Below, piece after piece: positions 30,342-34,303 of a stretch of DNA of 34,303 nt. The position numbers were made by a program, and so were the translations under genes. Position 1 is the first letter of the stretch. Each line of letters starts with the position of its first letter. A model generated the notes under the pieces. The model was given only the letters and a program-made list of their open reading frames with translations. It did not search any database and had not been told where the DNA came from. Origin of the DNA: Flavobacteriaceae bacterium (GTDB taxonomy: Bacteria > Bacteroidota > Bacteroidia > Flavobacteriales > Flavobacteriaceae); the NCBI GenBank assembly GCA_018623655.1, contig JAAZVG010000003.1, forward strand, positions 1 through 34,303. Reading direction: 5' to 3'.

Positions 30342-30349
30342 TAGTCTAT

Positions 30350-30401
30350 TTGAGGAAAAATTTGAACTGATTGCAACCTCTTAAAAAATGCTAAAGCAGT
30401 A
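30350..30401 (+). ncRNA. SAM-II-like riboswitch aptamer upstream of metK
   Basis: GAGGAAAAATTTGAACTGATTGCAACCTCTTAAAAAATGCTAAAGCAGT: P1 GAGG/CCTC, ATTT...ATTGCAA core, A-rich linker, ATGCTAAA, and pseudoknot P2 ACTG/CAGT, resembling the SAM-II consensus from memory. Confidence 0.75.
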
Positions 30402-30475
30402 TTCGTGTCTAAATAGCCCGTAGTGCTCTAGCTTCTTTTTCGGTTTTGTAATCTTCTGAATTAAAGAGACGAATT

Positions 30476-31747
30476 ATGTCATATTTATTTACATCAGAGT
30501 CGGTTAGTGAAGGACATCCTGACAAGATCGCCGATCAAATTAGCGATGCGCTATTAGATCACTTTTTGGCTTTTGATTCGCAAAGTAAGGTAGCTTGTGA
30601 AACACTTGTAACTACAGGTCAGGTGGTTTTGGCAGGCGAGGTGAAAAGCTCAACCTATTTAGATGTTCAATCGATAGCGCGTGGGGTAGTTAATAAGATC
30701 GGGTATACCAAAGGTGAATACATGTTTAGTGGTGATTCGTGCGGTGTTATCTCTCTTATTCATGAACAGAGTCAAGACATTAATAGAGGTGTTGATCGAA
30801 GCGCTCCAGAATCTCAAGGTGCAGGCGATCAAGGCATGATGTTCGGGTACGCGACTTCTGAAACTGAAGAGTATATGCCCCTGGCTCTTGTTATCTCACA
30901 TGAGATCTTAAAGGTACTTGCTGAATACCGTCGTGCTGCACATGAAGATTCGTCTAAACCGATGAATTATTTGCGCCCAGACGCGAAAGCTCAAGTCACT
31001 TTGCAGTATAACGACAACAATCAGCCGGAGCGAATTGACACCATCGTAGTATCTACCCAACATGACCCTTTTGACAATGAGCAAAACATGCTTAATCAGA
31101 TACGTACTGACATTGTCAATTACGTAATACCAGAAGTTAAGCAGAGAATGAGTGCTACGGTTCAGGCATTATTTACCGATGAAATCAACTATCACGTGAA
31201 CCCTACTGGTAAATTTGTTATTGGAGGTCCGCATGGTGACACCGGGTTAACGGGTCGTAAGATTATCGTTGATACTTACGGAGGTAAAGGCGCCCATGGT
31301 GGTGGAGCTTTTTCAGGAAAAGATCCTTCAAAAGTGGATCGATCTGCAGCCTATGCAGCACGGCATATTGCAAAGAATCTAGTAGCTGCAGGTGTAGCTT
31401 CTGAAGTACTTGTTCAATTGAGTTATGCTATTGGAGTGGCAGAACCTACCTCGGTGTTTATCGATACCTATGGAACGAATGCTACATCGTTTAGCGACGC
31501 AGAAATAGCTCAGAAAGTTTCAGAACGCTTTGATCTTACTCCATACGGAATAGAGACGCGGTTAAAGCTTCGTAATCCGATTTACAGCGAGACGGCCTCT
31601 TACGGTCATATGGGTAGAACTCCAAGGAAAGTGGTAAAGATCTTTGAATCACCATATAACGGTAAAGTTGCCCGTGAAGTTGAACTATTTACGTGGGAGA
31701 AACTTGATTTTATTGAATCCATGAAAGCGGTTTTTTTCGATAGTTAA
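30476..31747 (+). CDS. metK: S-adenosylmethionine synthase
   Basis: [37 protein letters not shown] and [21 protein letters not shown]...[19 protein letters not shown]. Confidence 0.99.
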
Positions 31748-31787
31748 AAATCGAATCATTTCACCCTTTTTTGAATTATTTTGCTCC

Positions 31788-31795
31788 TATGTTTG
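31788..31795 (+). promoter_or_regulatory. Candidate -7 element TATGTTTG for the pheA leader
   Basis: Exact TAnnTTTG match, 38 nt before the leader-peptide ATG; no convincing -33 element at standard spacing. Confidence 0.5.
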
Positions 31796-31833
31796 GTTTT
31801 TACTAAACCTTTTCTGTAATTAGCGCCGTTATT

Positions 31834-31896
31834 ATGAACAAGACACGCTTTTATAACGACTTTACTTACTTTAACTATTATCAGTTAGAGAGGTAG
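31834..31896 (+). CDS. Leader peptide MNKTRFYNDFTYFNYYQLER (Phe/Tyr-rich), putative attenuator peptide
   Basis: ATG...TAG 20-codon ORF; codons 6-16 are F Y N D F T Y F N Y Y; stop codon G overlaps the antiterminator strand; below the ORF-track length cutoff. Confidence 0.85.
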   Translation: MNKTRFYNDFTYFNYYQLER

Positions 31897-31954
31897 GGGC
31901 TTGTCGTTATTTAACGTATCATTATATTAAAGTCCCGTTTTTCGGGACTTTTTT
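31853..31954 (+). promoter_or_regulatory. Phe/Tyr transcription attenuator: mutually exclusive helices 1:2, 2:3 and 3:4
   Basis: Region 1 ATAACGAC 31853-31860 pairs with GTCGTTAT 31903-31910; GGGGCTT 31896-31902 pairs with AAGTCCC 31930-31936; terminator AAGTCCCG 31930-31937 pairs with CGGGACTT 31943-31950. Confidence 0.8.
31930..31954 (+). terminator. Attenuator terminator upstream of pheA
   Basis: AAGTCCCG-TTTTT-CGGGACTT followed by TTTT; ends 6 nt before the pheA ATG at 31961. Confidence 0.9.
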
Positions 31955-31960
31955 GTTTTT

Positions 31961-32800
31961 ATGAAAAAAGTAGCCATACAAGGGGTCGACGGATCCAACC
32001 ATTACATCGTAGCAAAAGCTTTCTATCCAGAGGGAGTAAGTTTAAGTCACTGTTATTCTTTTACGATGCTTGCCGAACAATTGTCAAGCGGTGAAGTAGA
32101 TGAGGCTATTATGGCCATTGAAAATTCAATTGCCGGGGCTATATTACCGAATTACTCTTTGATTTATCAAAATGACTTTGAGATTTCAGCTGAGTCCTAT
32201 TTGAGTATCTCCCATAATCTAATGGCTCTGCCAGAGAGTACAATAGATGATATAAAGGAAGTGCGGTCACATCCTATGGCCTTACTCCAATGTGCAGCCT
32301 TTTTTCAAAATCACAAGTCAATACGACTTGTCGAAGATGATGACACGGCCTCAGTAGCAGCAAGAATTCAGGAATCCAATTTAAAAGGAGTGGCTGCTAT
32401 AGCACCAAAGGTGGCTGCTGAACGCTATAATCTAAAAATCTTGAGTCCAAATATTCAGACCTTGACGAATAATGCTACCCGTTTTGTAGTATTAAATAGA
32501 ACGAATAGCAAGTCTAAATCAGGGCAAATCAATAAAGCCTCTGTTCGCTTTGTAACAGGTCATAAGAGAGGAAGCCTAGCTACCATCCTTAATGTGCTTA
32601 GCGATTGTGATATGAATTTGACTAAAATTCAATCTTTGCCCATTGTCGAAACCCCTTGGAAATATGCTTTTTTTGTAGATGTCACTTTCGAGAAGGTTAA
32701 TGACTTTGAAAAGGCAGCGACGGCCTTATCTATTATGGCTGAGGAGTTTAAAGTGCTAGGTACTTATGAAAATCAACTCTTAAAAAGTGCTGACAAATGA
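31961..32800 (+). CDS. pheA: Prephenate dehydratase with C-terminal ACT domain
   Basis: MAIENSIAGAILPNYSLIYQ, VRSHPMALLQC, NNATRFVVLNR and GSLATILNVLSDCDMNLTKIQSLPI. Confidence 0.96.
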   Translation: MKKVAIQGVDGSNHYIVAKAFYPEGVSLSHCYSFTMLAEQLSSGEVDEAIMAIENSIAGAILPNYSLIYQNDFEISAESYLSISHNLMALPESTIDDIKEVRSHPMALLQCAAFFQNHKSIRLVEDDDTASVAARIQESNLKGVAAIAPKVAAERYNLKILSPNIQTLTNNATRFVVLNRTNSKSKSGQINKASVRFVTGHKRGSLATILNVLSDCDMNLTKIQSLPIVETPWKYAFFVDVTFEKVNDFEKAATALSIMAEEFKVLGTYENQLLKSADK

Positions 32801-33942
32801 GAGAAGCCGATCGATTAAGCAGCGTTTCAGAGTACTATTTCTCTAAAAAACTGAAAGAGGTAAAGGGACTTATAGCCGAAGGGAAACCCATAATCAATAT
32901 GGGAGTTGGAAGCCCAGATTTGAATCCTCCAGTCGAGGTTACAGATGCGCTGGTGAGTGCGCTTTCTGTAAAAGGTGTTCATGGTTACCAAAGTTATGTG
33001 GGTAGAGAAGAATTGAGAGCGGGTTTTGCATCGTTTTACAAAGAACATTACGGTGTAAGTCTAAATATAGATTCAGAGATTCTTCCTTTAATGGGATCTA
33101 AAGAAGGTATTATGCATATCAGTATGGCCTTTGTAAACCCTGGTGATAAGGTACTTATACCTAACCCTGGGTATCCGACATATTCTTCAGTCACCGAACT
33201 TGTTGGAGGCAAGGCAATTTACTACAGCCTTACCTCTGATGGGTTACCAGATTTCGACCAAATTGACGCAAGAGATCTAAATGAAGCGGTAATGATGTGG
33301 GTGAATTATCCGCACATGCCAACAGGTAAATCAATCACCGAGGATAAGTGGGCTGTCTTGGCTCAAAAAGCTCAAGAATTTGATTTGCTTTTAATTAACG
33401 ATAATCCGTACAGTTTTATTGGTAACGATCATCCGAGTTCACTCTTGTCGCAAAAAGGTAAATACGGTCCCTTACTAGAATTAAATTCACTTTCAAAGGT
33501 GGTTAATATGGCCGGATGGAGAGTGGGTTCAGTACAAGGGGATACCGATCTTATTCAATCGATCTTAAAGGTTAAATCAAATATGGACTCAGGAATGTTT
33601 ATGGGAATTCAACACGCTGCGGTCGCTGCACTTGCTCAGCCTAGAGAGTGGTTTGATCAGTTGAATAGGGTATACGATCAGCGAAGAGCAAAGATGGAAG
33701 AATTGTGCCAACTTTTGGGATTAGCACCTGACCCAAATCAGGTAGGGATGTTTGTGTGGTGTCGAATCCCAGAAAACACAAAGGCCGAGGAGCTCGTAGA
33801 GAAATACCTCAGTGAATATCATTTTTTTATTGCACCCGGAACTATTTTTGGCTCTGAAGGCAGTGGGTATGTTCGTTTCTCTCTCTGTATTGAGATCGAT
33901 CGAATTGAAGAAGTAATTAAGCGAATAGGTAAAGCGTCATGA
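32797..33942 (+). CDS. Class I/II pyridoxal-phosphate aminotransferase
   Basis: INMGVGSPDLNPP, NPGYPTYSSV, MWVNYPHMPTG, ELNSLSKVVNMAGWRVG; ATGA coupling with pheA. Confidence 0.95.
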   Translation: MREADRLSSVSEYYFSKKLKEVKGLIAEGKPIINMGVGSPDLNPPVEVTDALVSALSVKGVHGYQSYVGREELRAGFASFYKEHYGVSLNIDSEILPLMGSKEGIMHISMAFVNPGDKVLIPNPGYPTYSSVTELVGGKAIYYSLTSDGLPDFDQIDARDLNEAVMMWVNYPHMPTGKSITEDKWAVLAQKAQEFDLLLINDNPYSFIGNDHPSSLLSQKGKYGPLLELNSLSKVVNMAGWRVGSVQGDTDLIQSILKVKSNMDSGMFMGIQHAAVAALAQPREWFDQLNRVYDQRRAKMEELCQLLGLAPDPNQVGMFVWCRIPENTKAEELVEKYLSEYHFFIAPGTIFGSEGSGYVRFSLCIEIDRIEEVIKRIGKAS

Positions 33943-34303
33943 AGTCGGTATCGATCATAGGAGTTGGATTAATTGGAGGATCTTGGGCGCTTGCTCTAAA
34001 AAAGCACTTCTCAGACATCACTATTTTGGGTGTAGACAACAATCAATCTCACCTAGAGGAGGCGCTTCGTTCAGGTTTAATTGATAAAGCTGTTGATTTA
34101 GATGCAGCTGCACAGTCAGATTTAGTTTTTGTAAGCATTCCTGTAGGAGCAGCATCAGAGGTCATATGTTCTTTACTTGATAAGGTTGGTGAGCACACGC
34201 TCGTTATGGATGCGGGTTCAACAAAATCCGCACTCTGTAAGTCAATTAACGAACATCCGAATCGATCGCATTTTCTAGCCGCTCACCCTATTGCCGGGAC
34301 CGA
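33939..34303 (+). CDS. tyrA: Prephenate dehydrogenase (5' part; runs off right edge)
   Basis: Translation from ATG 33939: MKSVSIIGVGLIGGSWALALKKHFSDITILGVDNNQSHLEEALRSGLIDKAVDLDAAAQSDLVFVSIPVGA...VMDAGSTKSALCK...FLAAHPIAGT. Confidence 0.95.
   Translation, partial: MKSVSIIGVGLIGGSWALALKKHFSDITILGVDNNQSHLEEALRSGLIDKAVDLDAAAQSDLVFVSIPVGAASEVICSLLDKVGEHTLVMDAGSTKSALCKSINEHPNRSHFLAAHPIAGT

What the first reader, a model, noticed from the sequence alone, without database searches (positions are those of the whole stretch)
31834..31960. Complete Phe/Tyr leader-peptide attenuator upstream of pheA-aminotransferase-tyrA
Seen directly: a 20-codon ORF absent from the ORF track, MNKTRFYNDFTYFNYYQLER, with 3 Phe and 4 Tyr codons, all within codons 6-16. 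Three helices can be drawn. 1:2 is ATAACGAC (31853-31860) with GTCGTTAT (31903-31910), 8 bp perfect. 2:3 is GGGGCTT (31896-31902) with AAGTCCC (31930-31936), 7 bp with one G-U. 3:4 is AAGTCCCG/CGGGACTT with a U-tract. Helix 2:3 excludes the terminator 3:4; 1:2 would make 2:3 a topologically disfavoured pseudoknot. The leader stop TAG (31894-31896) donates the first G of the antiterminator strand, so a ribosome at the stop would mask it (terminate), whereas a ribosome stalled on the Phe/Tyr run would cover region 1 and free 2:3 (read through). Established knowledge: this is the logic of enterobacterial pheA/trp attenuation. Inference: here one leader senses both Phe and Tyr, matching an operon that makes both, in a phylum that generally does not rely on Shine-Dalgarno initiation, so how leader translation starts is itself of interest.
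Basis: partly seen in the sequence, partly recalled or inferred. Interest (0 to 1): 0.93.

Follow-up and report, generated by a model that had tools for sequence, protein, structure and literature searches.

The report
Phe/Tyr leader-peptide attenuator before pheA
Upstream of its genes for making phenylalanine and tyrosine, this flavobacterium carries a tiny Phe/Tyr-rich reading frame and three competing RNA hairpins that should stop transcription when both amino acids are plentiful; the same switch, diverged in sequence but kept in logic, sits before pheA in almost every Flavobacteriaceae genome examined and in many other Bacteroidota families.

Summary
The ORF alone is weak evidence (2.5% of shuffles give one as F/Y-rich). 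Comparison settles it. 166 of 170 Flavobacteriaceae pheA upstream regions have an F/Y(/W)-rich leader plus terminator. All three helices covary: partners from the same genome pair far better than swapped partners (1:2 -13.9 vs -9.3, sd 0.2), and the test repeats for 1:2 and 2:3 in 27 regions from 15 other families. The gap from the last F/Y codon to the antiterminator is almost fixed (9-12 nt; 14 here). Footprint modelling gives the expected switch. Best reading: classical ribosome-mediated transcription attenuation, without Shine-Dalgarno, with a predicted short 5' UTR. Expression and response to Phe/Tyr remain untested. Prior art reduces novelty: an attenuator was predicted before B. thetaiotaomicron pheA (2005), and leader-peptide attenuation was suggested for F. 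psychrophilum (2021), with a conserved pheA 5' element. No Rfam family covers it. New member of a known kind, unusually well supported, part of a suite (his, trp, some ilv) in this family.

The parts
31793..31795 (+). candidate -33 element TTG of the conserved promoter
   Evidence: 21 nt upstream of the candidate -7 box; in relatives TTG lies 17-19 nt upstream of the box in 75 of 135; inferred
31817..31823 (+). candidate -7 box TAATTAG (predicted TSS about 31828, 5' UTR about 6 nt)
   Evidence: the position is conserved in the nearest relatives; the family box TAnnTT[AT]G is upstream of 135/160 leaders vs 4/160 control segments; the window's copy is a degenerate match; inferred
31788..31795 (+). 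alternative -7 box TATGTTTG (exact TAnnTTTG; would give a 5' UTR of about 34 nt)
   Evidence: sequence; not exactly conserved in L002/L003; inferred
31834..31896 (+). leader peptide ORF MNKTRFYNDFTYFNYYQLER, 3 Phe + 4 Tyr codons
   Evidence: F/Y-rich leaders at the same place in 166/170 Flavobacteriaceae regions
31853..31860 (+). region 1, 5' arm of anti-antiterminator helix 1:2 (hairpin pairing extends to 31876)
   Evidence: compensatory changes in 5 of 8 pairs in six nearest sequences; species-swap test
31903..31910 (+). 3' arm of helix 1:2
31896..31902 (+). region 2, antiterminator strand GGGGCTT; its first G is the last base of the leader stop
   Evidence: covariation with region 3 across species
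31929..31937 (+). region 3, 5' arm of terminator and 3' arm of antiterminator
31943..31951 (+). region 4, 3' arm of terminator
   Evidence: hairpin -13.4 kcal/mol
31952..31960 (+). U-tract of the intrinsic terminator
31961..32800 (+). pheA, prephenate dehydratase
   Evidence: PF00800 E=1e-50
32797..33942 (+). class I/II aminotransferase
   Evidence: PF00155 E=7.2e-53
33939..34303 (+). tyrA, prephenate dehydrogenase, cut by contig end; in the sister genome followed by a DAHP synthase-chorismate mutase
   Evidence: PF02153; L201 5193-6275 PF00793+PF01817

Best explanation
This is a ribosome-mediated transcription attenuator controlling the pheA-aminotransferase-tyrA(-DAHP synthase/chorismate mutase) operon in response to charged tRNA-Phe and tRNA-Tyr. 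The leader ORF is translated as it is transcribed. If either amino acid is short, the ribosome stalls on one of the seven F/Y codons (6-16) and covers or melts region 1. Region 2 (GGGGCTT) then pairs with region 3, the terminator cannot form and the operon is read. If both are plentiful, the ribosome reaches the stop codon, whose last base is the first base of region 2, and masks region 2, so 3:4 forms and transcription stops just before pheA. Without translation, 1:2 sequesters region 2 and the default is termination. Shown: sequence, conservation, covariation of all three helices, spacing. Modelled: ribosome footprints. Inferred: promoter, translation of the leader, response to Phe/Tyr.
For: 166/170 Flavobacteriaceae pheA upstream regions carry an F/Y(/W)-rich leader plus terminator; at score cut-offs passed by 91-98% of real regions, 5-11% of shuffles pass. 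Swap tests on 155 regions, mean duplex energy own vs swapped: 1:2 -13.86 vs -9.33 sd 0.20; 2:3 -12.65 vs -10.15 sd 0.17; 3:4 -14.59 vs -11.73 sd 0.14; control segment -5.33 vs -5.12 sd 0.12. Repeated in 27 regions of 15 other families: 1:2 -11.3 vs -8.2 sd 0.53; 2:3 -13.2 vs -8.4 sd 0.53. In the six nearest sequences 5 of 8 pairs of 1:2 change on both sides. The gap from the last F/Y codon to region 2 is 9-12 nt in nearly all. Modelled stalls at F6-Y16 allow 2:3, a ribosome at the stop does not. A promoter-like box and A at -3 (72%) precede the leader start. The same genome has His (hisG) and Trp (trpE) leaders with terminators.
Against: No transcript or translation data. The window's -7 box is degenerate and an alternative box exists. 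The swap tests use region boundaries chosen by best complementarity, which helps 2:3 and 3:4; 1:2 is less affected. The 2:3 helix here is weak (-7.6 kcal/mol for the helix alone, loop of 27 nt) and hardly varies among the six nearest sequences, so its support comes from the wider family.
Confidence: 0.93

Rival explanations
1. Translational rather than transcriptional control: the hairpin 3:4, ending 9 bases before the pheA start, blocks ribosome entry on pheA, and leader stalling opens it.
For: In the window the stem ends at 31951 and pheA starts at 31961.
Against: Across the family the terminator keeps its distance to the leader stop (mostly 18-36 nt) while the distance from leader stop to pheA varies from about 48 to 180 nt, and a T-run follows the stem (required by the terminator scan, but also plain in the sequences printed); these fit an intrinsic terminator.
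Confidence: 0.05
2. The hairpin is only the terminator of metK and the ORF is a chance reading frame.
For: metK ends at 31747 upstream on the same strand; the ORF by itself has about a 2.5% chance.
Against: Conservation of leader, spacing and covarying alternative helices over 166 Flavobacteriaceae regions and 15 further families.
Confidence: 0.01
3. The terminator is controlled by something other than the ribosome (T-box, protein or riboswitch) and the peptide is incidental.
For: Some bacterial aromatic amino-acid operons use T-boxes or protein-controlled attenuators (general knowledge).
Against: No Rfam family other than SAM-II before metK (and tRNAs) reaches its gathering score in the window or in ten relatives; the fixed spacing from codons to region 2 is explained by a ribosome and by little else.
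Confidence: 0.01

Closest known systems
Enterobacterial pheA (pheL) leader attenuator, Rfam RF01859 Phe_leader
   Same: Leader peptide with Phe codons, 1:2 / 2:3 / 3:4 logic, pheA downstream.
   Different: Covariance model scores 22.7 bits against a gathering score of 55, so not a member of the Rfam family; Tyr codons as numerous as Phe; no Shine-Dalgarno; the operon also makes Tyr and, in the sister genome, holds a DAHP synthase.
Structured 5' element upstream of pheA in Flavobacterium psychrophilum (PMC9723704, 2021)
   Same: Same bacterial family, same gene; the authors report strong clues for leader-peptide attenuation before amino-acid operons and conservation of the pheA and hisG elements in other genera of Flavobacteriaceae.
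   Different: The main text gives no peptide, alternative-helix model or covariation for pheA; its supplements could not be read here. The present data extend it to 166 regions and to other families.
Predicted attenuator before pheA>hisHb>aroA-aroQ>tyrA in Bacteroides thetaiotaomicron (PMC1173090 Table 7, 2005)
   Same: Same operon type and phylum; predicted terminator/antiterminator attenuator.
   Different: The paper describes no leader peptide for it.
E. coli trp and his operon attenuators
   Same: Mechanism: ribosome stalling on regulatory codons selects antiterminator over terminator.
   Different: Two amino acids sensed here; initiation without Shine-Dalgarno.

Membership tests
Ribosome-mediated (leader peptide) transcription attenuators | Short upstream ORF rich in codons for the operon's product | tested here: met
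   7 F/Y of 20 codons; 166/170 relatives
Ribosome-mediated (leader peptide) transcription attenuators | Intrinsic terminator between leader ORF and first gene | tested here: met
   9-bp stem, U-tract, -13.4 kcal/mol; covariation of 3:4
Ribosome-mediated (leader peptide) transcription attenuators | Antiterminator 2:3 excluding the terminator | tested here: met
Ribosome-mediated (leader peptide) transcription attenuators | Anti-antiterminator 1:2 overlapping the leader ORF | tested here: met
Ribosome-mediated (leader peptide) transcription attenuators | Regulatory codons and stop placed so that stalling frees region 2 and the stop position masks it | tested here: met
   near-fixed 9-12 nt gap, footprint model
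Ribosome-mediated (leader peptide) transcription attenuators | Leader is transcribed and translated; readthrough rises on starvation for the cognate amino acids | not testable with these tools
   needs RNA and reporter experiments
Rfam RF01859 Phe_leader | Match to the covariance model at gathering score | tested here: not met
   22.7 bits vs 55
T-box | T-box motif and specifier stem (Rfam model match) | tested here: not met
   no match at gathering score in the window or ten relatives, none at E up to 5 in 31750-31980

The most novel reading that the evidence does not exclude
One leader senses all three aromatic amino acids. 114 of 160 distinct Flavobacteriaceae leaders also contain a Trp codon, in one large clade the residue before N-G-F is always W, Y or F (54/12/9), and the operon (sister genome) ends with DAHP synthase, which feeds Trp as well. 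The leader would start on a very short 5' UTR without Shine-Dalgarno (predicted median 14 nt, about 6 nt here), so that attenuation in Bacteroidota would rest on close transcription-translation coupling from nearly leaderless starts. The window's own peptide has no Trp.
Probability: 0.3. Interest if true: 0.7.

Novelty: new member of a known kind. Interest (0 to 1): 0.52.

Why it matters
It shows that ribosome-mediated attenuation is a standard control of aromatic amino-acid synthesis over much of the class Bacteroidia, a group that hardly uses Shine-Dalgarno initiation. Such control needs close coupling of the leading ribosome to RNA polymerase, so these leaders are ready-made probes for whether coupling exists in Bacteroidota and how a short leader ORF is started there. 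It also supplies an element family (Phe/Tyr, with His and Trp counterparts) that Rfam lacks.

Tried and rejected
RNAalifold on the two large clade alignments recovered essentially only 3:4, because 1:2 and 2:3 shift register between species and compete; replaced by species-swap duplex tests. Rfam at relaxed threshold gave only sub-threshold matches. Thr-rich leaders before fused thrA-type genes were looked for and were not clear. Formal pair counting of 2:3 in the six nearest sequences was uninformative because the helix hardly varies. Beyond the class, five pheA homologues with 32-37% identity had no such leader.

Full report
WHAT IS THERE. The window is a whole contig of a small Flavobacteriaceae draft genome (the nearest named relative, L002, is a Flavobacteriaceae metagenome-assembled genome with PheA 86% identical). 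Between metK (ends 31747) and pheA (31961) lies an ORF 31834-31896, MNKTRFYNDFTYFNYYQLER, followed by a strong terminator (31929-31951) and U-tract. The 1:2 hairpin is longer than drawn: with the internal pairing it has 23 bp and -18.8 kcal/mol, holding region 2 partly paired and partly in a bulge. Downstream genes are prephenate dehydratase, a class I/II aminotransferase and prephenate dehydrogenase; the contig stops there, and in the sister genome a DAHP synthase-chorismate mutase follows.

MORE THAN CHANCE? Taken alone, the ORF is only mildly unusual (505 of 20,000 shuffles), though the fold is more stable than all 200 shuffles (z -4.66). Relatives decide. From 170 pheA upstream regions of Flavobacteriaceae, 166 carry a short ORF with at least five F/Y/W residues and a terminator behind it, F/Y counts being mostly 7-11. 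Peptides form recognisable types...YFWNGFYFYFFFKRGTGLL...TYYNWFYFFFSKRNETLYV...VWQGFYFYFYFFSKR, and the window's own type. Some regions come from the same or closely related genomes found in two collections; 160 are distinct in sequence.

COVARIATION. Because the helices shift register between clades, I tested whether a segment pairs better with its own genome's partner than with that of another genome. For 155 regions the mean duplex energy was -13.86 own vs -9.33 (sd 0.20, best of 200 swaps -9.94) for 1:2, -12.65 vs -10.15 (sd 0.17) for 2:3, and -14.59 vs -11.73 (sd 0.14) for 3:4; a control segment upstream of the leader gave -5.33 vs -5.12 (sd 0.12). Regions 2, 3 and 4 were located by complementarity, which favours 2:3 and 3:4 somewhat; 1:2 was not selected that way. 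In the six nearest sequences 5 of 8 pairs of 1:2 change on both sides and sliding the partner destroys the signal, while 2:3 hardly varies there.

RANGE. In an even draw from the class and order, 50 pheA regions of 26 other families were read. 27 of them, from 15 families, have an F/Y-rich leader, terminator and complementary region 2, and the swap test holds again for 1:2 and 2:3. Two genomes listed as phylum-level relatives with PheA 41-45% identical also have such leaders; five more distant ones do not. Absence in a family is not proven by this search.

GEOMETRY AND MECHANISM. The last F/Y codon before region 2 ends 9-12 nt upstream of it in nearly all genomes (14 in the window), whatever the peptide; this is about the reach of a ribosome beyond its A site (general knowledge). 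Region 2 overlaps the last five or six codons in most of the family and starts at the stop codon here. With a footprint of -17 to +12 around the A-site codon, stalls at F6, Y7, F10, Y12, F13, Y15 and Y16 each leave 2:3 as the predicted fold of the emerging RNA; a ribosome at the stop leaves region 3 without its region-2 partner and the terminator forms; with no ribosome 1:2 forms and again the terminator. This is the trp/phe attenuation logic (established knowledge). Once region 4 is made, the terminator is also the most stable fold of the stalled state, so antitermination must be kinetic, as in the classical cases. Expression, translation and response are inferred, not shown.

START OF THE LEADER. 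135 of 160 leader starts are preceded by TAnnTT[AT]G (4 of 160 in control segments), often with TTG 17-19 nt further up (75 of 135), matching the Bacteroidetes sigma-A promoter (TAnnTTTG at -12 to -5; PMC9723704). The implied 5' UTR has a median of 14 nt. For the window a degenerate box (TAATTAG, 31817-31823) would give about 6 nt; an exact TATGTTTG at 31788-31795 would give about 34 nt but is less conserved. Only 1 of 160 has an SD-like 4-mer; A at -3 is 72%, the positive determinant found in F. johnsoniae (PMC6847099). 5' UTRs average 33 nt in F. johnsoniae and have a median of 24 nt in F. psychrophilum, so these leaders would be at the short end.

CONTEXT. The same family has His-rich leaders before hisG (30 of 30 looked at have at least 2, nearly all 3-6 His), WWW leaders before trpE (29 of 30 with WWW; the window's own genome has WW), and Ile/Val-rich leaders before some ilvD genes. 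In the window's own genome MNKTSHHQHLFYCAQAR and MIQKITNKNWWKSS are each followed by a terminator-like hairpin before hisG and trpE.

KNOWN OR NEW. A 2005 survey lists a predicted attenuator before B. thetaiotaomicron pheA (PMC1173090). The 2021 F. psychrophilum transcriptome paper reports strong clues for leader-peptide attenuation before amino-acid operons and a pheA 5' element conserved in other genera without Rfam match (PMC9723704). I found no paper in the held library that describes the Phe/Tyr peptide, the helices or the range given here; most subscription journals and the supplements were not readable. Rfam has no matching family. So it is a new, well-supported member of a known kind. 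The open part is whether Trp is sensed too and how the SD-less leader is started.

Noticed in passing
window 30346-30404: SAM-II riboswitch (RF01726, 62.5 bits) upstream of metK (30476), so two different RNA switches lie within 1.7 kb.
   Followed up: no
L260 1227-1280 (own genome, before hisG): His leader MNKTSHHQHLFYCAQAR with terminator-like hairpin; similar HHHH leaders before hisG throughout the family.
   Followed up: partly
L297 reverse strand 880-924 (own genome, before trpE): Trp leader MIQKITNKNWWKSS, terminator-like hairpin behind it, and a TATATTTG box ending 5 nt before the ATG, implying a nearly leaderless start; WWW leaders in 29 of 30 loci examined.
   Followed up: partly
L300, L304, L323, L325, L326, L328 upstream of ilvD: Ile/Val-rich short ORFs such as MNRQIINIISIIIVVIISHR, probable branched-chain leader peptides.
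   Followed up: partly
Flavobacteriaceae leaders, clade with YTY...LYV (e.g. L100): The C-terminal residues LYV* seem kept because their codons (TTGTATGTATAA) pair with the codons for YTY near the start, i.e. RNA structure appears to dictate the peptide.
   Followed up: partly
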